DNA of 32,489 nt from Ectocarpus siliculosus (taxonomy: Eukaryota; Sar; Phaeophyceae; Ectocarpales; Ectocarpaceae), in NCBI GenBank assembly GCA_000310025.1, contig FN649730.1, positions 1,560,365 through 1,592,853 of the forward strand. Reading direction: 5' to 3'. The position numbers were made by a program, and so were the translations under genes. Each line of letters starts with the position of its first letter. The first letter of the stretch is position 1. Positions 2,268 to 32,489 of the stretch are shown in pieces. The notes beneath the pieces were generated by a model, which worked only from the letters and a program-made list of their open reading frames with translations, did no database searches and was not told where the DNA came from.

Positions 2268-4101
2268 TGAGCCGCAGGTCGTGCAGATGGTGCTGCAAAG
2301 TTAATTGAGCGTCGGCCGTTCAAAAATCTGTACGCCCTCTCCATCACTAGCACATCGGTGCAACGAGTATCAACTACTTCCCGTCATGAACGCTAGCCCA
2401 CCTTCTCTTTCTTTTCCTGCTGTTGCACCTGCTCCTCTTGCTCTTCGTCCTTCTCGTGCTTCATTTTCCCCTACTCTTCCTCCTCCACCACCACCACCTC
2501 CCCCATGTCCTCCCCCCCCCCCCACCCCCCAACCGTGCTCCTCCCCACCATCCATCTTGGGATTGGCCTGTTAACGTCGCCTAACTAGCACGGCTACCAT
2601 GTTGTGTGCGAGAAACAAGGTAACAAGGCAAGTCCCCACAAATCTACACCGAAATCGAACTTCATGCTCCGACCGTTTTTCTGGCTCTGTTGCCTCGACC
2701 TAGTCCCAAGGGTCACAAGGTCTGCATCAACATACAACCTTTTAAGATTACTACGTAGGTGGCGATACAGTACCCGAAAGTCGTTACGACCTATATCTTA
2801 CCAAGCACATGTCGACCTGCTGACGGTCATAAGCCGGTGTGGGTGGTGGCGTCTTCCGCCAAACGGGGGTAATCGGGCACAAAGGTAAGTCAATACCATG
2901 AACATCCGGTACAGCTGCACGTTGGTCTTGCCACATGGTCAAGACGTTTAGCAGGCATGCGAATCGTCGACGCAGCCGGCCAAGCCCCAACCCTCACTCA
3001 AACAAATGGCACCCCTAGACACCAGACATCCCTGGGATACCTACCGCGTCTTCGTGCCTCTCCTGAATGGTGCTTCCCACCCACAGCGCCGTGGTGTGAT
3101 GATTGGTGTTCCTGCCCTGTATCGTCCGTGCCGTGTGGTGTGCAGTGGTCCTCCTCTTCGTCTTCGGACATGTCTGACTCGCAGTGCTGCACGACGGAAG
3201 CACGAGAGGCATGAACGGGATCCACACGAGGACAAGGGGAGTCTCCAAAAGCAGCATGTCACTGGAGGTTCTCCATGTTGCGTGCCCGGATTCCCCCTTC
3301 CATCTGTGGGTAGTTGATGGGGGGGAGATGCCGAAGTTCCGACGCGATGCCGAATAGTATATTCCCGCGTAACGGTACGCACAACCTCACTTTGACTTCC
3401 ACAAGAATATCACCAGTCTAGGCTTTCACACCAACAGATGACATGGAGCCTGCATGTAGCATGACACGGATTGCAACAAGCAAGGCATGGGTGGAACCTG
3501 CCGCAGTGAAGGTTTCGAAAAATACGGTCATACAGATGAAACGGAAGAACCACGGGCTGTCCTTCACCACGCCAAAACCACCCTCAATATCCTCTCGTTG
3601 GTTTCCCGGCCCTATGCTTACCGTTGCCCATGCTGCCCTTGTTGTCACCGTACGGCATTGTCCTGAATGAGGTGGCCGAAACAACAGAAACACTCAGGTG
3701 GTAAACAAGGGCCAGCCAAAGGGTGAGGCATTGGATGCGCCATTTGCACCTATCAACACCTAACTCCTCGGACAATCCTATACATATGATTGGTCATCTT
3801 GCCCCGCAGTCATCACACACGTTCTGTTAATACAATGCATTTGCATACTACGCTCTCAAGCGTTTTTTTTTTTTGTTGTCTTCACTTCAAATCGGCGCTC
3901 ACAGCTCTTATAGTGCCATTTACTCCAACCCGTGGTCACACAGAAGAGCCCCTCTCTACCCTCCCCTCCTGCGGTACTTTGCCTACGATTTTTAATGCGA
4001 GAAGAGTTCAGCACTCTCTTCCCTCTGTGTAAACACGAACTAGCTCTATCCACTAAGCCAGGAGCGGAAGCGAGAGAAAAACTCACTTTGCAAGAAAAGC
4101 T
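2268..4101. other. Intergenic stretch with C-rich low-complexity tract
   Basis: No recognisable gene. At about 2480-2540 there is a CCT/CCA/C-run tract whose translations in every frame are only poly-Pro, poly-Gly or similar. Open frames at 2957-3317 (plus) and 2998-3382 (minus) overlap each other in different frames, and neither resembles a known protein. Confidence 0.45.
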
Positions 4102-4174
4102 CGCTTACGCCGGGATTCGAACCCCTAAACTGACCTCTAGAAGGTTTCGAGGATACCAACTAGACCACGGGGGT
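4102..4174 (-). tRNA. tRNA-like sequence, probably a pseudogene or SINE head
   Basis: Read on the minus strand this is a 73-nt unit with both internal RNA polymerase III promoter boxes at tRNA spacing: A box TGGTCTAGTTGG (4156-4167) and B box GGTTCGAATCC (4113-4123). A T4 run (4095-4098) just past the 3' end could terminate transcription. However, the 7-nt acceptor ends pair at only about 3 of 7 positions, the T stem has two mismatches, and the D and anticodon stems do not close well. The anticodon would read TCT (Arg) if the canonical length is kept, but this is unreliable. It is best taken as a decayed tRNA or the tRNA-derived head of a SINE. Confidence 0.5.
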
Positions 4175-4249
4175 GGTAGGAAAACAAAATAGCGGCACAG
4201 TATATTTGCCAAGCGTTCAGTGACGCAAATGAGCCACCCAAGCGCACAC

Positions 4250-4580
4250 CTTTCCTTCGCGACCGGCAGCTTGATATCTACTTCAACGGCTGCAGCTGCG
4301 GCTTTGGCCGCCGCTTCTTTTCCCGCTCGGGTTGCCGATACAGCTGCCGCCGCCTCCTTTGCTGCCTCCGCCGCCTTCGAGACCTTGGGCGGCCGTCATC
4401 GCCATGCTGGCTGCTTGCGACACCCTTGCCGTTACTCCAGGTATGAGGAAGGGTGCCAACACCGACCGTGGCAGCCAGGACCTCTTCATCAACGGCTCGA
4501 AGGCTGGAGAACGTGAGCCTAAGCCTCTCCGAAGCATCCGTCAATCGTTGTCTTGCCGCCGCCATACCTCGTCGATCTTC
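4250..4580 (-). CDS. Two possible exons of an Ala-rich helical protein (unrecognised)
   Basis: I do not recognise this protein. Candidate exon 4467-4580 (38 codons, phase 0 at both ends) follows a good pyrimidine-rich acceptor ending GCTGCAG and encodes an amphipathic, Arg/Glu/Leu-rich segment (RQRLTDASERLRL, then RAVDEEVLAAT). Candidate exon 4250-4383 (134 nt) begins after an AAG acceptor in the matching phase and encodes Lys/Glu/Ala-rich heptad-like sequence (VSKAAEAAKEAAAA, later VEVDIKLPVAKE), ending at a GTGTGC donor. The intron between them would be 83 nt. The composition suggests a coiled coil. I found no first or last exon, and Ala-rich open frames arise easily in GC-rich repeats, so this model is weak. 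Confidence 0.28.
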
Positions 4581-6528
4581 CTGCAGCGATGGCGATGGAG
4601 GGGAGGGTGCGTGTGTGCGCAAAAGGGACACACCTTTGCTTCGAAAATGTTAGCGCCAATGTGACGGGGTGGGTAGCGGCGGTACTGGTAAAAGTGTGTT
4701 AGCCACTACATTGTGCTCTAGAAACAAGAGGGGGGCCCTAGAGAGCAGACCATAGGGTATGCCGCCTCGACAGGGGGACAGATATCATCAAAGGGGGTTC
4801 CCCACAACTTTGTTTCACGTGTAGGAAGAACCCTTCGAAAGTTTATTAACACACGCCTGCCTGTGCCTCGGGCTCTTGCCCAACACGGCGAGTCTTCCGC
4901 TGGAGCGAGTTTTGTGCACAGTAAGCCCCGCGCCTGACCCTCACTTTGGGCGGAAATTGTGTCACACGGGCCTTCCTTTGAACAGCCCATTTTTCTGAAA
5001 TTTGTTCTTTCGTGGCCAATCATCAATCCCCGCATTTTTCGCAGCAACATCAGCTTCACAAGCGAAACATAGGAACATTGGCTGTGGTGTGTCCTTTGTA
5101 TGAATTAGTTGACGACGAAATGGGATTGCTGCAGCGGCCCCTTGTTCCCACCCGGCTGTGGGGCCGCAGGGACATTGCATAGGGAGCAGGACAGTCACCG
5201 CTGTAGTAGTACCGGCGGCAGAGCCGTTGCGCCCGGGCACAAATTTCGGAGATGAGCGGACAAAAAAACACCGATGAGAAAGTGCAGGTAGGTCTGATTA
5301 CTGCCAACATGGCAAAAAAAAGGAACCGAAGCCGCCGCCCCCCTTCTCGCCCTTCTACGGGGCTGACGAGACCTTGCAAGGAAAGCAGGGCAATCACTGC
5401 TATCAATGACGCAGAAATAGTAGCAAGAGCTGGTGGAGTCAAGCAATGTCACCCAAAAGTCAGTTCATGAGAAGAAAACGCAAGAAAAAACCATTCCCAC
5501 ACAACACCATTTGAGCTTTTTCCACCGTCGTGCCTCGCCCCGGCTCCCACACCCTAGACAGACCACCCCCTCGCATCCTCTCCCTCCTAGCAGTTCTCCC
5601 ACCAGAGCTCGCTCCCTAGGTGCTCGCCCAGTAGACGGCAGTGGGCCTCTGCGTCCTTGATCCGCCCGTCGCGACCGAATCGGCTGGTTGTGTGCTACTG
5701 TTTGTGTGGCCACCACACTTCTGTTTTTGCTTGACAGGCGGGGGACGTTTTGGACCCGTGCGACTACCCGATCATAGGATGCCGACTGAGCGGCGATGGC
5801 GTACTCGTTTTTGGAACGGTTTCTTGTGTGACTCGGATAGAAACGAGAGCTGTGTTTTCGTCGGTGACGATTTTCGTTATAGGTTCGCACGTTCGCGTCA
5901 GCAGGGGAAGAAGGCCGAAATTTGCTCGAGTTTAAAGGGTTTGATAGGTTAGAACCCGCCGATTGAACAAAATGACAGACAAAAACACGTATAAGTCCTG
6001 TTCACGGGCGTTTGCTGAACCGCAAGAGCCAGTTAGTCCATGGCATCGAGTATTCCGGGTTCTCTTCTCGCTGCTTTTGATATCAAGTCAAAACAATATT
6101 TGGCGCCGTCAACCGCAAAAGCGAAAAAAAAAAATGTTCGGCCAAAAACGAACGAATAATCGGCCCACGCGTATACACCAAAGAGGGGGGTCAGGCGCAA
6201 GGCTAACAGTGGTGCGACTGACGGCATGCACCAGGCCATTAACGCCTGCACGGCATGAAGAATACCTGAGGACTTCGATACTGCCGTCTGTCTGCGTGAA
6301 ACTCCGTTCGCCTAGTGCTTTCGAGGTGGGCATCACACATTCCGCCTCTGCGATCTCCTATCGTATTGATGCGTGGTTGATTTTCAATATTCGGATCGGT
6401 CTTCCCGATGATCATTACCTAGTTTAGCCTTCCGGCAATAAAATAAAAAACATCTTAACAATATATAGGTGCGTAATGGGCACACATCCACTCGTTGATT
6501 TGATTACTAACCCCCAGTGTGAATCACC
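4581..6528. other. Intergenic stretch, no recognisable gene
   Basis: The longest open frame (5963-6427 plus, 154 codons) has no recognisable domain and no convincing splice or start context. The stretch directly precedes the possible copia LTR. Confidence 0.45.
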
Positions 6529-6726
6529 TGTTGGGTGTACTCAGCACTAGATACGGATCTACGGAGATCTCGAGGGTTTCCTGTATCTTCTTGGTATGTG
6601 TTACTGGAAGGGCGTACCCCCTTCTGGTGTGCAGGGGTTTTTGCCCTGCTGTTCACTCGTTAATGACAAGGTCTTGAGCCAACCTTCTGCCCACAGCCTC
6701 TGACGGTAGGCACCCGCTACCCAACA
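6529..6726 (+). repeat. Possible 5' LTR of a copia-type element
   Basis: The 198-bp segment starts TGTTGGGT and ends ACCCAACA, a perfect 8-bp terminal inversion with the TG...CA ends usual for LTRs, and it sits just upstream of the gag-like ORF. I could not find a second copy downstream, the sequence after its end does not look like a typical primer binding site, and the flanking bases do not match as a target duplication of a solo LTR. A short direct repeat (CGTCACAGTTTGGAGCT) occurs twice about 47 bp apart between this segment and the ORF (about 6791 and 6838). Confidence 0.4.
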
Positions 6727-6845: not shown

Positions 6846-8124
6846 TTGGAGCTCGCGGTCGTGTGCTTTGTGTTTGATATGTCATCGGGAAGGAGATGGA
6901 CTCATTTGAGGCGGCGGAACTCAAAGCCGAACTTGCCCTACCAGAGGGCAGAGTCGCAAATGCCGTGCGGGCACGGCAGGTGGCAACAAGTTCAGCGGAT
7001 ACATCCGTCGCTGGATTTCAAGGATGCGGTGCGACTACGCAGCCGCAGCAACAGCAGCAGGAGTTCGAATACGGCAGTTTCCAGCAGCAGCAGGACCGGG
7101 GGAATCAGCGGTGGATACCCCGCGGGAATTTTCTGTCGCAGCAACAGCAGCTGGCTCAAGGTGCAAGGAGCCAGCAGCAGGAGGAGCAGCGCCAACCGTT
7201 TGTCCGCAGCAGCGGGACCCCCAGGACACGACGTGGATGCAGCGCAATCGCGCAGCAGCCGCCGCAGCCGCGAGGTGATCCTCCTTGCCAGCACCAGGAA
7301 CAGCAACGGCAACAACACGGTGTATGGGGCTTTCAACAGCCACAGCAATCACAACAGCAGCAGGGCGGTGTATGGGGCTCTCGACAGTCGCAACGGGCAC
7401 AGGCGCAGATTTTCCCCGCTTGCATGCTGCGTCTGCGTGTTTCCCGCCGGCACGCTCAGGTGTATCGAGATTCATGGGTACCATGGGCACCTTCCACGCT
7501 TCCCCATCGGGCGAGATGGTGTTCAACCGTCGTTCGCCGCGGCCGGAGGAGCGGGAGCTTGTGAACAGCAATGGCCAGAGGCTTCGGGTATCGTTCTTTG
7601 GTGACTTGACGCTACTGTTCCACTGCACGCAGAACGTTCTTCTCACTTTGAAGGACGTTGCTGTCGTTCCGGAGCTGGCATATGCCCTCATTTCCTTCAC
7701 CAAGGTGCAGAGGAGACAGGACGTCATCCTGAGCAGCAAGGGTGTGTCGCTCATGGGGCGAAGCATCCAGTTTGAGAACTTCAGCAACGGCAACTTCATC
7801 CAGGGTACTCGTGTTTTGCCTGCTGACTTCCCGTCTTGTGCGGTAGCCGCTATGCCATCTTTACCGGTGGCTACGGCATCTCCCCCTGGAGGGTGGCTTC
7901 GTCCAGGGGCATTGGCGGCGTCTCCAGTGCCAGCAGTGCCGACCGAACCGCATTCCCCAGCATTGGTGGAGGAGTCAGGTGCCAGACAAGAGCGCGCCCA
8001 TCGCGGATTCCGAGCGGTTGGCGGCGGGCTCCACGGCGGAAGATACTGCGGCGGAGGCACCAGCGGTGACGATAGCGACGGAGCCGCGCTCCCCAGCAGT
8101 GGTGGATCGGAAGTTTTGTGGTAG
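6846..8124 (+). mobile_element. Broken Ty1/copia-type retrotransposon (gag-like and protease region)
   Basis: The open frame 6896-7564 encodes a Gln-rich gag-like product starting MDSFEAAELKAELALPEG, with CAG/CAA-rich stretches. The frame 7285-8124 then takes over and, from about 7510 to 7830, encodes a segment typical of the copia protease-to-integrase junction: NGQRL, FFGDLTLLF, LTLKDVAVVPELAYALISF. In the family this follows the aspartic protease D-[ST]-G motif; here only a DSW remnant remains, in the other frame (about 7468), so the two halves are out of frame. No integrase, reverse transcriptase or RNase H domain follows; the downstream 8.1-8.7 kb is only GC-rich repetitive sequence. This is a dead or severely truncated copy. 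The overlap of frames makes exact limits uncertain. Confidence 0.7.
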
Positions 8125-19575: not shown

Positions 19576-19931
19576 ACTTCTTTGTCCCAGACCATAGGTG
19601 GCCAGTGTTGACATGAGCTAAAATGTGAAACACGAAACAGGTGTGGTAAACATATATAATATGCAGCACATGTTACCGAAACCCTGCTATCACGCGGAGG
19701 CGAGTCGGCTTGTTCTCATCTCGGGCAGCGTGAAAACGCAAGTCTTCCGCGTATCCGCAGGCAGTCGTATCCGGCCGACCCCGTACCAACGAGAAAGCAA
19801 CACGGCGGCGGTGTCTCTAGGTGCTATCAGGAAACAGGGCGGCTGCGCTTATTGGTCGCTCGACGAGCCTGTGGTTGACCTACAGTACAGAGGCAGCCGC
19901 CATCAACAACCACCTTCCCCACACCCCCTCA

Positions 19932-20070
19932 TCTCACCTCAAGTCATGCCGACAAGGGCAGACAGACCCCTCTCCCAACACGAAACCCTCACGCGCTGTG
20001 TCTCACCTCAAGCCATCCCCACAGAGGCAGACGCGTCTCTCATCACGAAACCCTCATGCGTTTTGTCTCC
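19932..20070. repeat. Tandem repeat of about 69 bp across the CK2-beta stop codon
   Basis: TCTCACCTCAAG starts at 19932 and again at 20001 (69 bp apart), and a shortened third unit start (TCTCC) follows at 20066. The ACGAAACCCTCA-CG block is also shared by both full units. The unit at 20001-20065 includes the last codons and TGA (20043-20045) of the CK2-beta reading frame; the other lies in its 3' flank. Confidence 0.75.
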
Positions 20071-22573
20071 CGGCCAGCGCCGCCACCGCTTCCGCCCGCG
20101 CCAGCGGTGGACCCGCCGCCGCCGCCTCCATCCCCAGCCCCAGCCCCAGCCCCAGCTTCGGCCTTCACGACCGGAGCCATCTCCTTCGACCCCGTTCTAC
20201 GCTCCACGACCGGCATCGCCGCCACCACCGCCTCCTCCTCCGCCAATCTCTCCTCCGCCCCAACGCTGCCACCGCCGCCGCCGCCGCCACCGCCGCTGCT
20301 GCCGCCACCGCTGCGCGGGCTTGTTGCTCTCTGCCCATCCCCGCCGTCCTCGCTTTTCGTGGCCGCCTCCGCCAGGGTAGCCAGGCCTCCGCTCCCGGCC
20401 CGGCGCCGCCCCCTTTCCTCTTCCCCGACCCCTTCCTTATCTCCGCAGCTGTTCCCATCGGGCACCACCGCCGGTCCCGAGCACGCCTCCCCGGGAAAAC
20501 CGCCTCGTTGTTGTTGTTGTTGCTGCTGTTGCTGCTCCGACTGGGCCCGATCGCTCGCCCCGCCGCGCCCTCCGTCGCCGGGCTGTTGGGCCGAAGAGCC
20601 GGGGGGACGACCGCTGCTGCCGCCGCCGCCAGGAGACTTGGATCTCTCCGCCCGCGAGCCGGTAGTACCGTTGTTGGAGGTGTTCCCGCCGCCGGCTCCA
20701 CCGGTCACTGTCCCTCGGCTGTAGAGGCGACACGCCACACCAGGATACGGGGTTAGTTCGTTCGTTCAATGGGCGAATCGGCTTGCCTGTTTACCGCACC
20801 CTGCAGCAGTGTTATCAATCCCACTTTGCCGCCGCCACCCGAGTCCGACAGTTGTACGACAGCGGTACTGCCGCACTACAAAAGACAGGTACACGGTGAG
20901 CGTGACATGCAGTTGACGAACACAATCTTCTTACCGCGGAGCCTGTTGCTACATCCAACTCTCTACGTTCAGAGTTAGAAAAGATATCCTGGCGAGGGGC
21001 TGGCGAGGCCGAGTAAATGTTTGTCAATCCCAACGCTGACAATGGTGGTTTAAAGGCAACAACAGTAACGACGATGACGACCGCAACAGCACCAAAAGCA
21101 GCGACTCACCTTGTTACAGAGTCGTCCTGGCTACCGTCTCCCGCCCTCCCCCTGCTGCTCTCCCCGTCCCCTTGCCGCGTGCCCTTCGAACGTGACCAAA
21201 CAACAAGCGCCAACACCAAGAACAGGCATGGTGCGTGCGGGTAAAAATCTCATTTAAGACCACTTACACTAGCAACACCAGCATCAAGCACGGTAGCAAC
21301 GACAACCAGAATTCAGAGTAGCTGCTAGATTTCACAGTAGCTGCTGCGTGAAAATGCCAATCGAAGCTTCGGAATACCCCCCCCTGGGTACCGTTACGGG
21401 GCTGAGCTGCAACCATCCGGTGAGCCAACCTTCGTCCAAAGCCACCGATCACCTGCAGCTTACCCAAGACCACAAAACAGGTCCCGGCCGATATTTCATT
21501 CTTAACCCTTAGCCGAATATTTTGACGCGCACCATGCGGCAGCAGAGGCAGAGAAAACATATCCACGGCGTGAACAAAAAAAAACACGTGAACAACCTGA
21601 ACTTCTCAAAACAGCTGATATGACGCAATATCACACGTCATGTATTGCCGGGACCCCCATTCCAAAAGAAGGTACCCGAAGCTGGCTGTCTGGAATCTCG
21701 TCCGAGTGGGCATCCACTACCGCATCATGGCCTTTGGAAGCGTTTTCCGTTCTTAGGCGCACCGACACTGGCTTTTCTGCACGGGTCAGCCGATTGGTGG
21801 GGTCGATGCTAAAACTAAAGGCACACGTACGCTGAACCGACGCTTTCCACACCAACGCCTCCACACACCTTCCCGCACGAGGAGCCGCCCCAGCCCTCCT
21901 GCCCCGCCGTCTCCGCCGCCCCGTCCGCGCGGGACTCCCTCTCCTGCTGGCGTCGCTTGTCTTTGCGGCCACCCCCGCCCCCCCCGCCCCACCAACCCAA
22001 CCAGGCGTGATTGTCAAGGAGCGGTGCCTANNNNNNNNNNNNNNNNNNNNNNNNNNNNNNNNNNNNNNNNNNNNNNNNNNNNNNNNNNNNNNNNNNNNNN
22101 NNNNNNNNNNNNNNNNNNNNNNNNNNNNNNACTCGCCAGACTTCCCGCTCCTCCGGTTCTTCTTCTTTCCTCTCCCGATGCTCTTCTCACTGTCACCGCC
22201 GCCGGCTGCCCCCTCCCGCCCGTCCTTGCCGCTCATGACCGCGGAGCCCGCGGAACCTTCCCCGGCCCCCGCGCCGCCACCGCCGGCCCACAACACCCCC
22301 TTCCCCCCCGTGCTGCCGCCGCCGCCCCCGGCTGCAGCGCCCCCCGCGGGAGCGCCACTTGCGTTAGCTCCCGACCCCGCGAAAGACGCCGATCCCGCTG
22401 CGCCCCCCGCTGTGGTAGTGATCCCGCTCCCCGCACCCCCCCCGGCTGATGTTGCGGTGCCTCTGCGGAGGTGCGCCGGAGCCGAGGAAGAGTTGGATGA
22501 GTTCGTCGCGGCGGCGGCGGCGGCAGCGGCGCCGGAACCGGCGGCGACTCCGCCGTTGTTGCCGCCGTTGGAG

Positions 22574-22621
<48 letters not shown>

Positions 22622-25600
22622 GAGGAGGCGGCTGTGGTGGAGTGCGGAAGTCGACGCTGCATGCACTTGGCGGATCTGAGAGGGGGGGATTGGAGGGGTG
22701 GAGGTTCATCATCAGAGATAGGTAGAGACAGACAGACAGACAGAGTGACTGACAGACAGACAGACAGACAGACAGGTCTACAGGCGTACAGCACACAAGT
22801 TCATCGGTCAGGCGGTGAGCGCGGTCGATGCAAACAAGACACACACACACAGAGACACCAACCAGCCCCTATAATAGCACCACTAAGGACCGCACTACTA
22901 TTGAAGGATACCCCTCCCCTGCGTGCGGTACTCACTTGTGAATCTTGAACCCGAAGATGAGGGGGGTGTAGCTAGACCTAGCAGGGTCCGGCACGAGCCT
23001 GTCGAACGTGATGAAGAACAGGTGTGCAAAGGAGGTGCCGAAGAATGCGCCATCCAACGCTGCAGAAGAAAAGAAAAAAAAGGGGAAAAAAAATAGAAAT
23101 TAGCCGGCCAAGCAGCTGGTTACTCTCCCGTTCACTGCAAAGACTCCCAATACATACCCTTCGACTGCTGCGGTATTACCTCGAAAGGGAAGTCTCTCTG
23201 TAGTACTACACATTGTGATGCAAAAAAAGGAGCCAACAGAAAAGACAATACCCAAGCCAGCAGAAATGTCACAACCCTGTGAAAGTGTAAAGTTTCGACA
23301 CACCTGAAAACATAGTGAAATTATCCCAAGCATGGAAACAAAGCGCGAGTTCGCACGCCATAAGTTGAGATACCAGGAGCAAACACTACTTGGAGGTGGC
23401 GTTATGTTTTGCGGCCATTCATATCCAGCTGGTAGGTTGGATGGATGGACCCTTCAGCGTAGTCTCCGCCCCCCCCCTCCTGTCCGGGGACCCGTGTGCA
23501 TACCGGTGTTCGCCAGAAGAAAAAAAAAACACACGAACGCTAAATGGAACCAGCAGTCTGGTCGCCGGTCAGCTGGAGAGCGAGCACTTCGAACAAAAGC
23601 AATAACCGAACAACACATGTCAACCGATCGACATGGCTTCCATGGCTTCCATGGACCGGCCGCTACGCGAAGGACACAGTGAAAACGCGGCGAGATTGGC
23701 GTCTTCGCCGTAATCAACCAATTGGGAGGAGGGTATCCAAAAGTGGCAATCAACTGTGAACAAAAGGGAAAAGTCGAACACGGCCGGGAAAAAGCCTCAT
23801 AAGTGCTGCAGTACGAGGGTTCATCGGGCGAGTTAGGTGCAGTTTCAAAACCAGAAGGGGCAACAAAAAAATTGAAACGAGTGACTGAATCAACGTCTTG
23901 CCAGCATCTACGTCATTTGCAGAACCGAGCATACCTTCCTTGCGCGGTAATAGGCGGAAAAAAACTTGAATACGCCAAAAGGGAAACCACAATGTAACCA
24001 TATCGGAGTGACTACACTGCGTCGCCGGGGAAAACAAGAAAGGGGTAAAAAACGGTGTTCGTAGATAAAATTGCTTGCTGGAGGTGTGTTGATGGTATAT
24101 TTGCGTCCTGTGGGAGGTGAGAGAGGGAATTGGCGCGGATGGGTGTCATGTCACTCACGTTCACCACCGTAGGGACTGACGGTGTTGTAAACGTCGCAGC
24201 ACCGCGGGCAGTAGAGTTTCACCGCCTCCTTCTTCGGTTCGTCGAAAATGCCCACCTGTTCGGATTCGGAGGGGAGAAACAGAAACGACAGAAATAGACA
24301 TGACAGATAAGCACAGGGGCAGGCAGGCAGGCAGGCAGACAGACAGACACACAGACAGACACACAGACTAGACACAGAAACACAGACGGACAGAAAGACG
24401 TCAATGTGTTGAAACCAAACACTCATGAATGGAAGAAAACACGGGACCTTCTGAAAACGTACAACTTAAGCACATGCTAGTCGGCATAATACAGAAGCAA
24501 AACTTCCGTGTGCAGTAGGCGCCCCCGGGCAACACGTTGCTCGTTGAGCACAAGCGCCACAAACCCAACGCAGGGCATCAGAAAGCAGAGGAAGTGACGT
24601 GATCATCGTGTGCCAAGCGCTACACTCGTGGACGCATCACACTCATAATTCGAAGCGATTTTCGCGTGCAGTCTCCCTTACCGGCACAACCGGTTGGTTC
24701 TTGCACATGGTCCTTGGACATCTCCCGAACTCTGCCAGGCGGTACTTCTTGTACTGCACAAAAAAAATAACAGGGCCATGGGCGGGGAGGGGGGAGGGGC
24801 GGGTCACTCCTTGAGGAATACACAAAAAGTCAAACGAAGTGGCACATCTTTGAGGAACGCTGCCTCTTTCGGACGATGCCGTAAAGAAATAAAATCGAGG
24901 GGTGTGGGGTGGGGTGGGGGGCACTTCATTCGGATACAAAAAAGATGCGGAACCTCTCCGGATGAGATGCTGTTCTCGAGGCCTTTCCAGCTTTGGGTGG
25001 GACACCTCGGCTAGTCTTGTCTTGGAGACGACCTTCGCTTCCCCGTCACTGTTTGGGAAAAAAAAACTGTTGTGGTTCCTAATGGATTGTTTCATAGCAC
25101 CTTAAATCATTGAGTGTTACCAACGTTTGGCGAACAAGGCCAACACATAGTTGTACCAATTGAATCTACAGTAGGTGGACCAAGCCACCTGCTACTAGTG
25201 CTCACGCCAATGGCGTGGACCACGCCCGTCCGACAAGACATCAAACCAACAACAACGTTATTTAGCACAAGCAACAACAGACGACGAGACGAACGACCTG
25301 CGTCACGCTACAACACACCATCGCTTCGAGGCCCCTTGCGGTGACGATGAAGCGAGCGTGAATCATGCCGTAGAGCATGAAGGCCGACTGAGCCACCACC
25401 GGGTCTTGGGGTTCATCCGCAGCTTCAAACAACGAAGAAAACGTGCACCGTAGAGAAAAAAAGAAAAAAAAAGTTGTCATGTTTTTTCCATGCACCAACC
25501 CAATGATCTGTCTCACGACGTAGGCTTCAAAGAGAAGGTAAGGTATTGTGAACAGAGGTGTGTATGACGACACGCGTTGCAACGAGGGCCCATGAAACGT

Positions 25601-26049
25601 ATCAGAGGCGGCTGCGTCTGGGGGTGCTGTTGGACATGGCGAGAAAACGAGAGTCAGCGATGCGGAATAAGCGAATGTGGAGATCAACAGCCTAAGAGGG
25701 TTGTTCCTTACCAGTTCGGTCCAGGATGATGTCCAGGCAGCCCTGGAAATTGGCGAAGTGGTGCCGCAGGCCGTACAGGTTGAACCCATCCTCGATGTAG
25801 CTTCTGTCCACCTCGCACAACATACCTGAAACAAGTTCATACGGCGTACATCGCAATGGAACGCCACAAAAGGCTGGTTTTCTTCCCACTCGCTGCAAAG
25901 AAATCAACACGTCCCTTCGAATGCGGTACTTTCTCGAACGGCCGTCTCTCTATTGATTGTATGTAATTTTCTCAAAAAAGAGATAGGAGAGCATGGAGCT
26001 TACAGACGCAGCCTGTGGTGCGCCAGATATGTTGCATGGCGAATGCCAT
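20043..26049 (-). CDS. CSNK2B: Casein kinase II regulatory (beta) subunit with long low-complexity tail
   Basis: CK2-beta dimerises through a zinc finger and docks two catalytic alpha subunits. Core exons (minus strand): 25712-25825 (CEVDRSYIEDGFNLYGL), 25319-25422 (FMLYGMIHARFIVTARGL), 24682-24753 (FGRCPRTMCKNQPVVP), 24159-24255 (KLYCPRCCDVYN), 22936-23059 (LDGAFFGTSFAHLFF, ending FGFKIH). The zinc ligands CPRTMC and CPRC are present. All introns are GT-AG and every phase matches. The acidic loop after LDIILD is shorter than in animals. The usual C-terminus (about 215 residues in total) is replaced: in phase, exon 22675 runs through KSAKCMQRRLPH into 15 Gln and Gly/Ala/Ser-rich sequence up to the gap at 22130, then 21869 to about 22027, 21110-21183, and 20043-20718 ending ETKRMRVS-stop. 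Visible codons exceed 660. Exon 1 (26004-26049, MAFAMQHIWRTTGCV) fits by phase but lacks the usual W--WFC motif, so the true start is unsure. Confidence 0.9.
22031..22130. other. Assembly gap (100 N)
   Basis: Exactly 100 N, the conventional size for a gap of unknown length. It interrupts the exon encoding the Gln/Gly-rich tail of CK2-beta, so the frame and any intron across it cannot be checked. On the far side the favoured minus frame begins with a TAG touching the gap, which could be a splice acceptor. Confidence 0.95.
22576..22620 (-). repeat. CAG repeat encoding 15 Gln in CK2-beta
   Basis: Fourteen pure CAG codons plus one CAA, read on the minus strand, giving an uninterrupted run of 15 Gln about 15 residues into the tail. 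A second run of nine Gln (CAG/CAA mixed) lies in the last exon at about 20507-20540. Confidence 0.9.
22726..22775. repeat. GACA microsatellite in CK2-beta intron
   Basis: GACAGACA units with one interruption (GAGTGACT), about 50 bp, lying in the intron between the last conserved-core exon and the polyQ exon. On the sense strand it reads as CTGT repeats upstream of the acceptor. Confidence 0.85.
23114..23206. repeat. Intronic interspersed repeat, copy A
   Basis: The segment starts AGCTGGTTACTCTCCC, continues with CACTGCAAAGA and CCCTTCGACTGC, then GCGGTA-T-CTCGAA and GTCTCTCT. The same order of blocks is found at 25872-25964, in the same orientation, in another intron of the same gene. The copies differ by many substitutions and small indels, so they are old. 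Confidence 0.6.
24318..24395. repeat. GGCA/GACA microsatellite in CK2-beta intron
   Basis: GGCAGGCA units grade into GACAGACA and CACAGACA units over about 78 bp, just upstream (sense strand) of the exon encoding the second zinc-finger half. It resembles the GACA tract at 22726. Confidence 0.85.
25872..25964. repeat. Intronic interspersed repeat, copy B
   Basis: Counterpart of copy A at 23114: GGCTGGTTTTCTTCCC, then CGCTGCAAAGA, CCCTTCGAATGCGGTACT, CTCGAACGG and GTCTCTCT. It lies in the first intron of the CK2-beta model. In sense orientation both copies contain a TTTGCAG that could act as a cryptic splice acceptor. Confidence 0.6.
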
Positions 26050-26060
26050 CGGAAGTAGCA

Positions 26061-29000
26061 CTGAAACCAGATGTTGCTCGGCACACATGTGGCATGAGCC
26101 AGCATCCGGTAGATGGACGAAATGGGATACACAAGTGTAAGACGGCACTACAGCACCGACATGTATAGTCAAGAGCGGCGTCTACCTGCCGCAGAAGGGG
26201 TGGGCTGAGAGGGTACAAGACTATGCCCACCCCCTTCACTTTTCTTGTTTTTCTTCCTGCACAAGGTGGATCTCGATCATCCCCGAGCGACCATAAACGT
26301 AGCGGGTCCCTTTTCTCTATTATCATTGCTAAGCGATCCATTCGCTGCAATGTTTTCATCATCTGGTGGATTATTCTTTCCCTTGGAGGTGCTGATTTCT
26401 GTCTGCTGTGTCCTTAATAGGGGCCATCTTCCCTCGATCGCAACCCCCTGCATGAGCTTGGCTCCCTTCGGCACTCCTCCCCCGCCCCCCTCCTGCAACA
26501 CCCTCGCGGAAACATCCATCTTTCATCAGTCGTATCGCGCTTTGCGACGCGCCGGCAACCGACGCGATATACCAGTCCATAGGGTTGGGTGGGAAAACGG
26601 GTCCGCTTAATGCAGTCACTCCGCCCTCCCAGAGGCTAGCGGCGAGGTCTGCACGTGAGCCGCGCGAGACCCAAGCAAATAGCGCTTCCGGATCTTGTCG
26701 ACTGTCCAGGGCAGTCTGCAGAGTCGCCGATGCTCTGCCCGCGCCTCTGTGGCATGTCCTAGCTTAAGCGCTTCGAGCCTTTGGCAGATCAGTCTAGATC
26801 GTCGCCAGAGAGTGGCCGATGCTCCTCAAAATGGCTTGCCGTAGGTCCGGTAAAACCCGCTTCGTTCCTTCGCGCCATCCACACCCTATACGCCGAGGAG
26901 CAAACGCTGAGAGGATACCCAAATAGGGGAACATCGTCGCGTCCAGAGTAACCTATCTGCCTTCTCTCTTGCCTCCCTCCCAAAGGCGGCGGAACCTCCC
27001 TCGTAGCAGCGATCTGCCGATGCACCGATCTGCTGCGTGTTCGGCGATACTGCTGCAGCAACATCTGGGAGAGCGCTTTCCTGTCAGGCCAGCTTCCTTC
27101 GCGCAGACGCCTTGACTTGCGTCACGCGCGCGTAGATCCGGTGGCGTACGACCAACCCCAACTCGAACCCAGCCGTTCCGCCCATCAGTGCTACGCGTGA
27201 ACCGGTAGGATCCTTCCGCCGAAAGCCTCAGGTGGCATGGACGTACCATAGATGCTTCTCAATGGCTACGCGTGCGCTTTAGCTGTGGGCGGGAAACCAG
27301 CCAGTCTTTGGGGGAGAGTGACGAAACGGTGCAGAGGCGTCGAACGCTTCCGAACCGCATCGGCATGTTTCTTCCCGTTCCATGGGCTACAAGAGCTCGT
27401 GAACCTCTCCATACACGCAATCGGGGCACGGCAGAATCCTTCCAGGAAAATTATTTGCAAGAGTCAGCAACCACCAGTCAGACTCCTATACAAGCACACA
27501 CTACCTCTTTGGCCTCCGTGACGCGCATTCCCGGGAAGTTTTTCCACCGCGCGTCTGATACTGACGTGTTTTCCCCCCATGACTTTCGCTACGTCGCGTG
27601 CTCCTAAGTGCACCGGATGGGATGGTGCGGCGTGAGGCCAAGCCAGAACGTCTCCTGTTTTCGCGGGTGCGTTTGTTGGACTACGACAACGGCAGAGTGC
27701 CTGATCTTCGTCTCTGGCCCTCTCCATTACTTGCTTCTGCTCTCCTCTGGGACGGCTTGTGCGCCTTCTTCTGCGGGTGTGCGTCCTAACTGGCATCGAC
27801 CATGCTAGGCGACTGACTAGCGAGACACGCGTCGTCCCACCGTAGGTAACATGACACAAGATACCACATCCCCTGGACCGATTTTCAAAGCGCGATTACT
27901 CCACGAGGAATAGCACTATTATAGTACTACGTCAAACTCGCAAAACACGTTATCGGAAAGCTCTCCACGATACGGTCCCAACGCCGCCATCTTCGGCACC
28001 GTTTCCGCTCTTTCTACGGAGAAATCGAGCTTTGGAAAATCGGTCCAGGGGGTGTGACGTCTTACGCAACCTACCGCAAGTGTGTGCCCGTGGACAAGAT
28101 GCTTCCTTGAATTATTCTTCCAAAACGGTGCGCCCACGTCTTTGGCTACATTTATGGCAGCAGGCGAAGAGTGATGTGGAAGAGGACAAGAGAGCAAGTA
28201 CGCACAGCCTCTGCTGCTGCCGCACCCGCGCTGCACGCATGACCTCGAGGTACGGCCACGGTTAAGCACACAACCTAATCATACGCGAGCGCGCAAGATA
28301 ATCACCATCACGATGGAAACTCGAGGTCGGTTCATCACCACATCTCTTCTGGACGTAGATTTTTCCGCCCTTCGGTATTATGTTTGGGTGGCACCAGCCG
28401 GGGTCGCCAGCAGGAAGGCCACAGAGGGATTTTGTCCATTTTCTACACCTGCTGCAGAAATATTCAGCCTTGCACTTTCCCTCGTCGGGCGTTGAGTTTG
28501 AATATTGTGCACACACGAAATCGTTGCCGATCGAATCGTTTGGGGTTTTGTAACTCGAGAAAAAGCATGCCGGTCTTCTTTGTGGCTTCGACGAGAATCG
28601 ATTTCACATCGAAACGTTGCGAAAGTTGTACTACCAAATGGCCCCGGGTTTGAACCGGAAAAATGCGGAGTGGTGGGCGTGAAGCACAGCAGAGGTATCG
28701 AGTGTCTCCCTGAGTTTATCGCTGGTCGACTACGGTTCTACTGCTGTTCCCTGAGCCGTGACCAAACAGACTCTTTCAAAAGACGCTGTGCGGCGGCTCA
28801 AAAGACAGGAGGGGTAACGGCCCGCTATGAGGATATACAAAAGTGGCACGCACGTACGATTCTCTACAACAGGCCATTGGTGGGGGACTCAGGGGTCGAA
28901 CACCGCCGTGATTGGCCAACCGGGAAACATAAGAAGAGGGTGTTCATGCTCGGAGAAGCGGAGATTGGCTATCCCGCGAAGAAACAATCGCGACAACGAA

Positions 29001-31092
29001 GAGAGATTGGTTTTTGGAAAAAGGAAAAGGCCCCGAGATCGAGACTGCTGTGCACTGCGCACCTCTCTTTGCACCCTACCACGACCTGACCTCATGTTGG
29101 CAGTTCCCTGACTGGGCCGAACGCGATTGGCGCACTGGTCGGGCGGATAGAAACTACACGCTTTTTCCGCTGCTGGGAAGCTGTAATCAATTGCATTCCG
29201 CTTCTGTGCGCCATCTCAACTTTTCGCGCCTGCTGGTGGCTCTCGCTTCTTGTTCTCACAGAATGAATGTGAGGTGCGGTCGAGAGCCAATTGCAGGTGG
29301 TGTGCCAAAGAGACTAGGGGACAACCCAATTTCATGGTTGCCAAAGGGCAACACACCGAGGATGAGGTGCGGGAAAAGCGGCTGATGGTTAGGTCCTGTG
29401 TGCATGCTGGCGTGTTTTCATAGCGCTTTCGTGCGGTCAACATTTGGCTAAACGCCGCACATGCTGACCACGTCACCCCGCGTCATCGATTCCGCCGCAT
29501 CTGGCTGTGGGGCGTATCGCTAACCTACGTTCGGTACCTGCCAGCTGCCCTTGTGCAGATAGCGTCAACACGACGCGAGCCCTCTTTGTCCAAGAGTCCT
29601 ACTGGAGCCCTCGTAATTGGGCTTTTCAAACCGAGCGCCAGGGTTAACGTGTAAAATAGGCCCTAAGCGCTTTCCCGAGCGACGGTCTGGCGATTCAAAA
29701 CCGCACACCACACAAAAAGCCCAAAGCCAAACACCCCCATGAACAAAACAGCAACAGGAGACAGCAGGAATGTTGTTTATGGAGGAGATGTGAGCGCAAG
29801 GATACCGCGGTGTGTGCGCTGCTGTTGTGCTACCTGCAGCACCGGGAGGGAGGCAGCGACGTAACAAAATGGGTGCGCGCCGGCTTTAAAAAAAGCATGA
29901 TAGAGTCCCTCTGGCTGTCTTTTCGGGGCGTTGCGTCGATGACGTGTCCTGTGTCACACAACGACCTCCACAAACGACTACGGACCAGATCGGAGAAAAA
30001 AGACCTTTCGAGATTCAGAATCTAAAATGTCGGCAGCCAGAGATGACGAGGCTTCATCGTGCAAGGCAACGCCGCTTCTATCAGCCTGCCGATCGCCTCG
30101 TACCAGGCCAAAGTCCTACGCTAGAGCGTCATAGGTGATCAGCACGTGCACAGGTCTCGCTAACCCCAAACTCGCACACCCCATGAAACGACACATGGGT
30201 GTGTCGCCTGCTGGGCGCTGGGGCCGGAAAGAGAAAAAAGAGCGCGCATATTTTTTTCGATATGACGCCGGGAGCAGCGGGGGCGGCCTTCGTTTGCCCG
30301 GAAAATCTTTACCGCTCAGCCTCCGGGGCAGATCTTCAGCGACTGCACGGATACTTCACTGCCTAGTGAGTGAATGTTGCCGCTTTCCCGCCCCAATGGG
30401 AATGCAGCGCTGGTGTTGTCTGCTGCCGCCGCAGCCGCCGCCCATACCTCTCTGTCGAGAGAATAACCTCCCCCCCCGCCCTCCGTGTAGCTCTGGAGCG
30501 CCTTTCCTCCTTCTACCGGGGCGAATGTTTCTAGCTGCAATGGGCGTCGTCGATTGGCAATGGTTCTTCTCGCTGCGTGTCTCACCTGATGTTGCTACCG
30601 GCCTCTCCTGGCGCAGCCCTTATCTCTCTCCCGCAGCGTGCGTGTCCTGCTTTGGTTGCTATTATTTTCATTTTGCGAAGGCCAAAAAAGCCAGGGGGCA
30701 CGCAGACGAATAACTTATGCCCCCTCCCTAGTTTTTATTTTTTTTTATCGTCACTGTGTGTCTGGGATGACGCATGACGTACGTACCTCGTATTGTTCTT
30801 GATCAACGCCGCTCCGTCGCGGCTCGATGGCAAAAGTGCAATAAAAGATGGCAGCCCGCGCACTTAATTATGGGAAACACGGCATAAGAACGTTTGTGTT
30901 TTTTTGTTCGCATCCTCTTCTATGCATATACTATGTCTAAACACACACTGCTGCTCACTGTCGGACAGAGAGAGATAGATGGAGAGAGACGTCTCTCCTG
31001 CGGCGACACCAAAAAAGGTATGCGTATGTAGACTGCGGTATTCAAGGGCGGCGGGGGGCGTGGCCTCCTGAGACCAAGACAGAGAACCCGAG
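26061..31092. other. Long stretch with no recognisable gene; may hold promoters of both flanking genes
   Basis: It lies between the 5' end of CK2-beta (minus) and the 5' end of the methyltransferase (plus), so the two genes diverge from here. A splice acceptor at 26061 suggests that a non-coding or coding first exon of CK2-beta is further right; I could not place it. Open frames of up to 194 codons (28505-29089 plus, 30135-30713 plus) have no recognisable domain. No TATA or other element could be assigned with confidence. Confidence 0.4.
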
Positions 31093-32457
31093 ATGAACAA
31101 GCCGGTGAACGCAGCAAGCAGTGTCCCTCCTGTCCTGTTCCTGGTGATAGCCAACATCTCCAAGCGCTGCAACATTCGCTCTCTCATCGCGTCGGCGGTG
31201 GCCTTTCAAGCAGAAATTCTCATTGGTGAGAAAGATGGTTGTTGCCAGAGACATTCAGAGATTCCGACACACGTATATGCATGGATCTCCTTCTCTCTAG
31301 TATCCATACGTTGGGGTTGCCTCGTGCGTGCCTTGCACTACGGAACTCGATCGAGAAGATGGCGTTGCCAAGTTGTACCTACACACGTCTTCTTGCCAAC
31401 AAAGATTGATTGATTGTTGGTGCCAACCTCCACAGCAACCACGAGCTGATGAGTCTGTACCCTTTTTTGTCTTGGGCACGGTTATACTACTCTGCTGCTG
31501 ACCTGGAGCAACTCCTATTTCAGCTTCCCGTGTCTTGTGTTGCGTAGTTTCGATTGTCTGTGAGCCCCGCAGTGTAGTTATGTACTAATTCATGACGGTA
31601 GTCTGCAGTGCGATACACCATCTGGTAGGCGCTGCTATAGACTTGAGCTCATGATTCATCCGTTTCGAACGGGGTAGTAAATATGTTTTCTGCGCAGCCG
31701 CTGGCCCCTTAAATCAGCAAGTGAGCCATCAGGGTCTTATGGATTGCTACGCGTGCGTGTAGACCTCAGCCCTACACGTGCAGTGGTTGGCCCCCCAAGA
31801 AATATACTGCCGGCTTTTCTTGTAGAAGAACCCCCCCCCCCTCCCTCCGCCCGTCTCTCCCTTCCGAGGGGATCGAAAGGATCAGTGAGCGTCAATCAAC
31901 ACCCTACACATGAGATGGAGAAAATAAACATAGTAGTGCAAAGGAGTCATGGTTACTGGAGACGACCGGTTGTACGTGCAGGAGCTTAATCGTGCCCAGC
32001 AGCCTGTTGTGCGTTTTCGGACTGTCTGCGTGATTCACCTCCTAATGTAAGCGAAGAAACCATGAGGTAACCCCTCCCCTTCTGCCTCCCACGGCGGATC
32101 ATATATATGCCAGCTCAGCCCCTCTTTTCCATCCCGCTTGTTTTGTTCACCGATATTCTCCCCGTCCCTCCTTCTTTCCCTCCCTCCCTCCCTCCCTCCC
32201 TCCCCCCCTCTCATTTCTCTTCTCGCACACGACGTTCTTCCTCATCAGTCGGCCAGCCGAAGTTCTCCATCGAGACGCACGCTCCGAGAGGCCTCCCCCC
32301 CGGGATAACCTTCACGAGGTTTTCGGACCTGCCGTCGTGCCGGGACTACGTGCACTCGAGAGGGGGCACGCTGATTGGCGTCGAGATCGGGGGGGGTGCG
32401 AGGAACATCGACGAGGAACCATTCCTGGGAACGTGCGCGTTCATGCCCGGAAACGAG
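31093..32457 (+). CDS. SpoU/TrmH-type RNA 2'-O-methyltransferase, 5' part
   Basis: SpoU (SPOUT) enzymes 2'-O-methylate riboses in tRNA or rRNA using S-adenosylmethionine bound in a C-terminal trefoil knot. Exon 31093-31225 starts at an ATG and encodes VPPVLFLVIANISKRCNIRS, then AVAFQAEILI. It joins by a GT-AG intron (phase 1) to exon 32249-32457, giving IVGQPKFSI across the junction, then FTRFSDLPSCRDYV, GGTLIGVEI, EEPFLGTCAFMPGNE. This follows the family order: motif 1 (N--------A-AF), the GVEI strand, and the start of motif 2, GNEG-GL. The second exon stops inside GNEG and the rest of the knot lies past the window. In motif 1 the usual Arg (as in NVGTLLRSA) is Ala here (NIRSLIASA), which is unusual. 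Substrate cannot be told. The first ATG is assumed to be the start; an upstream targeting exon cannot be excluded. Confidence 0.85.
32178..32205 (+). repeat. CCCT repeat forming a polypyrimidine tract
   Basis: Seven or so CCCT units followed by a C run, within a longer pyrimidine-only stretch, about 45 bp before the acceptor TCATCAG of the second methyltransferase exon. It probably doubles as the splicing polypyrimidine tract. Confidence 0.8.
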
Positions 32458-32463
32458 GCAAGT
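32458..32463 (+). other. Probable GC-AG intron donor in the methyltransferase gene
   Basis: The exon ends ...GGAAACGAG directly followed by GCAAGT, the strict consensus of GC-AG introns. The break falls within the family motif GNEG, exactly where the frame otherwise runs to a stop 9 bases later. There is no GT donor at this place. Confidence 0.65.
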
Positions 32464-32489
32464 ATTAGTTAGTTAGCGCCCGCGATTAA

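What the first reader, a model, noticed from the sequence alone, without database searches (positions are those of the whole stretch)
20043..22675. CK2-beta with a more than 450-residue Gln/Gly-rich C-terminal extension
CK2-beta is normally about 215 residues and very conserved. Here the conserved core ends at FGFKIH and the next exon enters, in exact phase, a tail with 15 Gln, Ala/Gly/Ser runs, a second polyQ, poly-Gly and a basic end (KRMRVS). Three further exons fit by splice phase (AAG|GTGTGT to 21183; ACA AG|GTGAGT to C CGA). The tail replaces the segment that contacts CK2-alpha in animal enzymes, so it could alter holoenzyme assembly or drive condensation. Known: CK2-beta core length and zinc finger. 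Inferred: tail belongs to the same mRNA.
Basis: partly seen in the sequence, partly recalled or inferred. Interest (0 to 1): 0.75.

Follow-up and report, generated by a model that had tools for sequence, protein, structure and literature searches.

The report
CK2-beta paralog with long disordered tail
This photosynthetic eukaryote keeps one ordinary regulatory subunit of the protein kinase CK2 and has two divergent copies, including this one, that probably carry hundreds of extra unstructured residues added after an otherwise intact kinase-binding core.

Summary
The sequence is as described. A CK2-beta gene lies on the minus strand. Its core (exons 25825-22936) matches Pfam CK_II_beta at 1.7e-58 and keeps four zinc cysteines. 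It ends FGFKIH AA|GTGAGT, a strong donor. The next exon, from 22675, continues in phase into a polyQ and Ala/Gly/Ser-rich frame that runs into an assembly gap; proposed later exons reach 20043.

The genome gives independent support. A second copy (contig C16) is sister to this one (99/98 in a five-row tree). It reads straight from FGFRVH into a stop-free 161-codon low-complexity tail, then a donor and a 223-codon frame. A third locus (C3) is the canonical CK2-beta (67% identical to Arabidopsis CKB1), so the tail belongs to a divergent pair, not to the conserved subunit.

The claim that the tail replaces the CK2-alpha contact is wrong: that contact is the hairpin R186-H193 plus helix alphaF; both regions are present and the tail begins after them.

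Open points: no transcript evidence; reading through the donor gives FGFKIHK-stop, a plant-like normal end; the gap hides one junction; acceptor and codon evidence is mixed; the N-terminal exon was not found; low-complexity frames are common in this genome.

The parts
25712..25825 (-). CK2-beta core exon (MLCEVDRSYIEDGFNLYG...ILDRT), phase-1 donor; its 5' boundary is uncertain
   Evidence: donor position and phase shared with paralog C16
25319..25422 (-). CK2-beta core exon (AADEPQDPVVAQSAFMLYGMIHARF...LEAM)
24682..24753 (-). CK2-beta core exon with first two zinc cysteines (FGRCPRTMCKNQPVVP)
24159..24255 (-). CK2-beta core exon with last two zinc cysteines (KLYCPRCCDVY)
22936..23059 (-). CK2-beta core exon ending in the CK2-alpha-binding hairpin LIFGFKIH
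   Evidence: hairpin role
22676..22935 (-). proposed 260-nt phase-2 intron; donor CAA|GTGAGT holds an in-frame TGA, so retention would give FGFKIHK-stop
   Evidence: donor rank 2 of 194, score reached by 0.39% of 16736 GTs
22131..22675 (-). tail exon 1: Q15, Ala/Gly/Ser runs, basic KKKNRRSGKSG; runs into the gap
22031..22130 (.). assembly gap (100 N) inside the tail
21869..22027 (-). proposed tail exon 2 (start uncertain), ...GGGGRKDKRRQQERESRADGAAE...CGK; donor AAG|GTGTGT
   Evidence: donor rank 4 of 194; start hidden by the gap
21110..21183 (-). proposed tail exon 3 (GTRQGDGESSRGRAGDGSQDDSVT), donor AAG|GTGAGT
   Evidence: donor rank 1 of 194, acceptor rank 20 of 187
20043..20718 (-). proposed last tail exon: second polyQ (20508-20534), poly-Gly, stop at 20043-20045
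   Evidence: acceptor rank 3 of 187
19932..20069 (.). 65-bp tandem repeat (2.1 copies) overlapping the last codons that encode KRMRVS

Best explanation
The locus is a divergent CK2-beta paralog. Its core folds and dimerises through the zinc finger and offers the normal hairpin to CK2-alpha. The mRNA then splices past the core into exons for a low-complexity, mostly disordered tail of at least 181 and probably about 480 residues. The tail is an added flexible arm: its basic clusters and runs would set location, partners or assembly state of a CK2 subpopulation, while the canonical C3 subunit does the general work. If the intron after FGFKIH is kept, translation stops one residue later and gives a plant-like short subunit, so the donor can act as a long/short switch. 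Shown: core, donor strength, phase, a sister paralog whose tail follows the core in one open frame, a canonical third copy. Inferred: that the tail exons are in this mRNA, that the core folds and binds CK2-alpha, and everything about tail function.
For: Core: Pfam 1.7e-58; PDB matches CKB1 6.8e-49 and human 8e-47, aligned through human H193; four zinc Cys invariant among five rows. Model donors rank 1, 2, 4 of 194; a score like the junction donor's is reached by 0.39% of 16736 GTs, training sites and true donors included. Exon 7 in the predicted frame has codon usage like the core (0.249 versus 0.284 bits per codon; other sense frames 0.07). Paralog C16: 161 stop-free codons directly after FGFRVH (14 of 2000 shuffles stop-free), then donor rank 1 of 63 and a 223-codon frame (38 of 2000). 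Of 181 GT[AG]AG[GT] motifs, 2 have a pyrimidine-rich phase-2 acceptor within 400 nt opening 180 or more codons: that C16 donor and one at window 8293 minus (the window CK2-beta donor was left out because of the gap). C5 and C16 are sisters, 99/98, and share a phase-1 donor after ILDRT and a phase-1 intron before DGA.
Against: No RNA data. FGFKIHK-TGA is a natural end (Arabidopsis CKB1 aligns to HK at 193 of 194). Exon 7 has its own in-frame ATG at 22662 (MQRRLP...). Acceptor 22675 ranks only 61 of 187. One antisense frame of exon 7 and two of the last exon are also stop-free with equal or better codon scores; the last exon's predicted frame is fourth of six. In C16 the tail codon scores are low: 0.053, and -0.015, the lowest of six frames. 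The second-best donor of that C16 stretch (8.2) lies 43 codons into its tail, so an inner splice is possible there. The tails of C5 and C16 are not convincingly alignable: exon 7 against C16's last exon beats 500 of 500 residue shuffles but is driven by runs; the other three pairs are equalled or beaten by 14, 22 and 369 of 500. The N-terminal exon was not found. The tree has five rows and long branches.
Confidence: 0.62

Rival explanations
1. The gene is a short, plant-like CK2-beta-like protein that stops at FGFKIHK-TGA; the downstream open frames are 3' UTR or a separate minus-strand gene, for example one starting at MQRRLP (22662).
For: TGA follows HK directly; CKB1 aligns to HK at 193 of 194; stop-free frames are cheap in this G+C-rich repeat (exon 7: 620 of 2000 shuffles); exon 7 has its own ATG; acceptor 22675 ranks 61 of 187.
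Against: Strong donor exactly there (rank 2 of 194), right phase, three model donors among the top four, and a sister paralog whose tail follows the core in one open frame.
Confidence: 0.23
2. The downstream low-complexity DNA codes on the plus strand (antisense Pro/Ala/Leu-rich frames) and the minus-strand tail frame is its mirror.
For: Plus-strand frames 21836-22948 (across the gap) and 19879-20724 are open; one antisense frame of exon 7 has codon score 0.26 with no stop, and two of the last exon 0.22 and 0.20.
Against: G+C-rich third positions make mirror frames expected; the three antisense frames of the C16 161-codon tail hold 2 stops each; plus-strand donors are weaker (2 of 135 GTs at 8.65 or more, none at 9.25; minus strand 4 and 2 of 193).
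Confidence: 0.07
3. The locus is a decaying duplicate: N-terminal exon lost, no working protein.
For: No convincing W..WFCGL..NE exon within 11.66 kb upstream: best scores 24.0 (WLWAFCVVCGFE, 29729) and 21.5, against 45 to 57 for the three paralog motifs, which are part of the profile; chance second-best scores in the paralog loci are 14 to 15. The genome search with the C16 N-terminus found residues 1-30 at C16 and C3 only.
Against: 170 core codons open with splice sites and the codon preference of conserved exons (0.284, GC3 0.78); structural residues conserved.
Confidence: 0.08

Closest known systems
Drosophila CK2-beta isoforms VIIa-d and VII-VI with alternative C-terminal tails (PMC5374408, passages)
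   Same: Conserved core plus variable C-terminus, some made by splicing; the review reports that the tails change function in vivo.
   Different: Tails there are about 15-20 residues; here 181 or more, low-complexity, in a separate divergent paralog.
Drosophila divergent CK2-beta paralogs: Stellate, CK2-beta', SSL/CK2-beta-tes (PMC5374408 passages; PMC3359341 one abstract passage)
   Same: Lineage-specific extra beta subunits beside a canonical one; the testis families are described as diverged and fast-evolving.
   Different: No long low-complexity tail is described in the passages I saw.
Arabidopsis CKB1 (PDB 9tfy; species name recalled) and human CK2-beta (1jwh, 3eed)
   Same: Core match, zinc cysteines, hairpin; CKB1 has the same FGFK-HK end.
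   Different: 48% and 45% identity over the core; chains of 194 and 215 residues, no long tail; the N-terminal motif of the genome's other copies was not found here.

Membership tests
CK2-beta (PF01214) | Match to the family profile over the core | tested here: met
   197.9 bits against cut-off 27, positions 14-182 of 182
CK2-beta (PF01214) | Four zinc-finger cysteines | tested here: met
   C84, C89, C112, C115 of the window protein; all four invariant columns in A1, five rows
CK2-beta (PF01214) | CK2-alpha-binding hairpin with Tyr188, Gly189, Phe190 | tested here: met
   LIFGFKIH: Gly and Phe190 kept, Tyr188 to Phe as in CKB1 (role)
CK2-beta (PF01214) | N-terminal helix W..WFCGLRGNE | tested here: not met
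   Not found in 11.66 kb upstream nor by genome search; a diverged or more distant exon is not excluded
CK2-beta (PF01214) | Acidic loop after ILD (human DLEPDEELEDN; its role recalled) | tested here: not met
   Window reads DRTAADEPQD; C16 DRTAREFLSAANSDD
CK2-beta (PF01214) | Dimerises and binds CK2-alpha | not testable with these tools
   needs biochemistry
Drosophila-type C-terminal splice isoforms | Alternative C-termini in real transcripts | not testable with these tools
   no RNA data held; only donor and acceptor strength and phase tested

The most novel reading that the evidence does not exclude
A divergent CK2-beta subfamily of this lineage has long disordered tails, and at this locus one splice donor with an in-frame TGA switches between a plant-like short subunit and a subunit with about 480 extra residues, so that intron retention sets where or in what assembly CK2 works.
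Probability: 0.25. Interest if true: 0.6.

Novelty: new variant of a known kind. Interest (0 to 1): 0.4.

Why it matters
CK2-beta is among the most conserved kinase subunits (recalled), and its C-terminus is where isoforms vary in flies. A genome with one canonical copy beside two diverged copies with very long tails would be a natural test of what an appended disordered arm does to CK2 targeting and assembly. It also warns against reading a low-complexity tail as a change of the CK2-alpha contact.

Tried and rejected
Search for outside relatives: a viral-contig scan with A1 gave 73 pattern matches and no confirmed relative. No eukaryote genome collection is held, so when the tail arose could not be dated.

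Alignment of the start of exon 7 with the paralogs' post-core DNA: no better than random pieces (698, 730 and 2265 of 2982 random pieces scored at least as high for C16, C12 and C3). C16 against C12 is weakly alike around an LQERxRR motif (39 of 2973). I do not claim homologous tails.

DNA copies of the tail elsewhere: exon 7 has 3 other short matches; the last exon has 45, all at query positions 399-527, the Gly-repeat stretch, one of them in the C16 paralog's own last exon. I found no sign of a dispersed element; the tool skips simple repeats and very common words.

Pfam on the window core plus exon 7, the last exon, and the two C16 tail pieces: no family over its cut-off beyond CK_II_beta; below cut-off at E up to 1 the window protein showed TFIIA (0.077), DUF4834 (0.26) and FAM171A1-2-B_C (0.96).

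Paper searches: 'CK2 beta' with 'C-terminal extension' and 'regulatory subunit', 0 papers; 'casein kinase II' with 'brown alga', 18 papers, 15 listed, none with CK2-beta in title or abstract start; 'CK2', 'regulatory subunit', 'Ckb1', 'C-terminal extension', 1 paper, on SnRK1; disordered-tail terms, 16 papers, 10 listed, none on CK2-beta tails by title or abstract start; five fungal terms, 0 papers. Searches for repeats in Ectocarpus proteins gave nothing I used. I infer only that these searches showed no description.

Organism: not named. It looks photosynthetic (87 chlorophyll-binding matches); brown alga is my guess from genome size, G+C and introns, not tested.

Dropped rows: 8 of 30 kinase exons were left out of codon training because of stops. 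The 30 loci are those cut out from 138 matches, and its frames are any of six, 150 codons or more. One search left out motifs near sequence ends or with N nearby, tried phase 2 only; for GTGAGT alone 1 of 51 passed, at window 8293.
Full report
What is there. The window lies in contig C5 of a 189.5 Mb eukaryotic genome. A CK2-beta gene runs on the minus strand. Five core exons (25825 to 22936) join in phase to a 170-residue core that matches Pfam CK_II_beta at 1.7e-58 and solved CK2-beta chains at 6.8e-49 (CKB1, 9tfy) and 8e-47 (human, 1jwh).

The core/tail junction. The core ends CAC AA|GTGAGT. Unspliced, it reads H-K-stop. Spliced to the AG at 22677-22676, it reads H-K-S-A-K-C-M-Q-R-R-L-P-H-S-T-T-A-A-S-S-Q15 and stays open for 181 codons to the gap. 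A donor matrix from 12 introns of the C5, C16 and C3 genes, candidates left out, ranks the junction donor 2nd and the two later donors 4th and 1st of 194 GTs in 23062-20045; the 3rd, at 20740, lies in the last proposed intron. Such scores are rare: 105 of 16736 GTs score 8.65 or more, and 0.39% reach 9.25, training sites and true donors included. Acceptors are less clear: ranks 3, 20 and 61 of 187 with a matrix of 10 sites.

Coding evidence in the tail is mixed. Exon 7 has codon preference close to the core (0.249 against 0.284) and above the other sense frames (0.07), but one antisense frame scores 0.26 without stops; the last exon's frame (0.156) is fourth of six, and two antisense frames there (0.22, 0.20) have no stop. 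Absence of stops is likely by chance in exon 7 (620 of 2000 shuffles) and less so in the last exon (85 of 2000).

The paralogs decide the weight. PF01214 gives 13 exon matches at four places: C5 (the window, 4), C16 (4), C3 (4) and C12 (1). In C16 the exon holding VDGAYFGTTF...RVFGFRVH runs on without a stop for 161 codons of Gly/Ala/Glu/Arg/Ser-rich sequence; 14 of 2000 shuffles match that. It ends at the best donor of 63, again overlapping an in-frame stop; a phase-2 acceptor at 6687 of the reversed locus (5th of 31 by the matrix) opens 223 more codons, which 38 of 2000 shuffles match. Against it: both C16 tail pieces have poor codon scores (0.053 and -0.015), and the second-best donor lies 43 codons into the tail. 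Among 181 donor-like motifs, two had a phase-2 continuation of 180 or more codons within 400 nt, one of them this C16 donor. C5 and C16 form a 99/98 pair in a five-row tree with long end branches (55% identity) and share a phase-1 donor after ILDRT and a phase-1 intron before DGA. C3, read from its exons with one short stretch not found, is 67% identical to CKB1, 59% to human, and ends YGFKIH plus a basic 38-residue tail. It is the canonical subunit.

What the tail does not do. The CK2-alpha contact is the hairpin R186-H193 (PMC5374420, passages) together with the area around helix alphaF of the other chain (PMC9608649, passages). Both regions are present here; in the second, human Met166 and Met169 are Leu and Ile. 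Human CK2-beta 1-193 ends exactly where this core ends, one Lys short, and has a crystal structure (3EED). So the tail starts after the contact and should not abolish it.

How it may work. Fly CK2-beta isoforms differ only in C-terminal tails of about 15-20 residues, and these change rescue ability (three of five rescue) and toxicity (two are dominant lethal); the CK2-beta C-terminus has also been linked to ring or filament assembly (PMC5374408, passages). By analogy, the long tail here may set partners, location or assembly state. The four tail pieces examined (two here, two in C16) are poor in hydrophobic residues (7-9%) and rich in A, G, S, Q, P and T (56-75%), so disorder is likely. The divergent pair also lacks the acidic loop after ILD, which suggests altered regulation. 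These are inferences.

How ordinary it is. Stretches of 100 residues with at least 60% A/G/S/Q/P/T occur in open frames (any of six) at 11 of 30 kinase loci sampled, and runs of six or more at 9 of 30. A low-complexity tail is therefore a common tendency of this genome. The unusual part is that it sits on a CK2-beta fold, twice, in a pair distinct from the canonical copy.

Verdict. The tail is probably real, the contact claim is wrong, and the gene is a divergent paralog. New variant of a known kind.

Noticed in passing
window 25826-32489 and L038 (5 kb further): No convincing exon for the CK2-beta N-terminus (W..WFCGL..NE) in 11.66 kb upstream; the recognisable core starts at MLCEVD with an ATG just after a possible acceptor.
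   Followed up: partly
L006 (C12), 2309-5208: Fourth CK2-beta locus looks degenerate: only one profile match, some core segments not seen, and an LQERRRRA motif resembling the C16 tail lies out of frame after the stop.
   Followed up: partly
window 19932-20069: A 65-bp tandem repeat overlaps the last codons of the tail, so KRMRVS lies inside a minisatellite unit.
   Followed up: no
window 7279-8124 (+): Open frame with a stretch (NVLLTLKDVAVVPELAYALISFTKVQ) resembling Copia-type retrotransposon polyproteins; label recalled, not searched.
   Followed up: no
window 8293 (-): The only other donor-like motif of 181 followed by a phase-2 acceptor and a frame of 180 or more codons (363); not examined.
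   Followed up: no
Ectocarpus papers PMC11057875 and PMC12592211 (passages): A casein kinase gametologue is sex-linked in brown algae; the passages do not say which kind, so a link to any locus here is untested.
   Followed up: no
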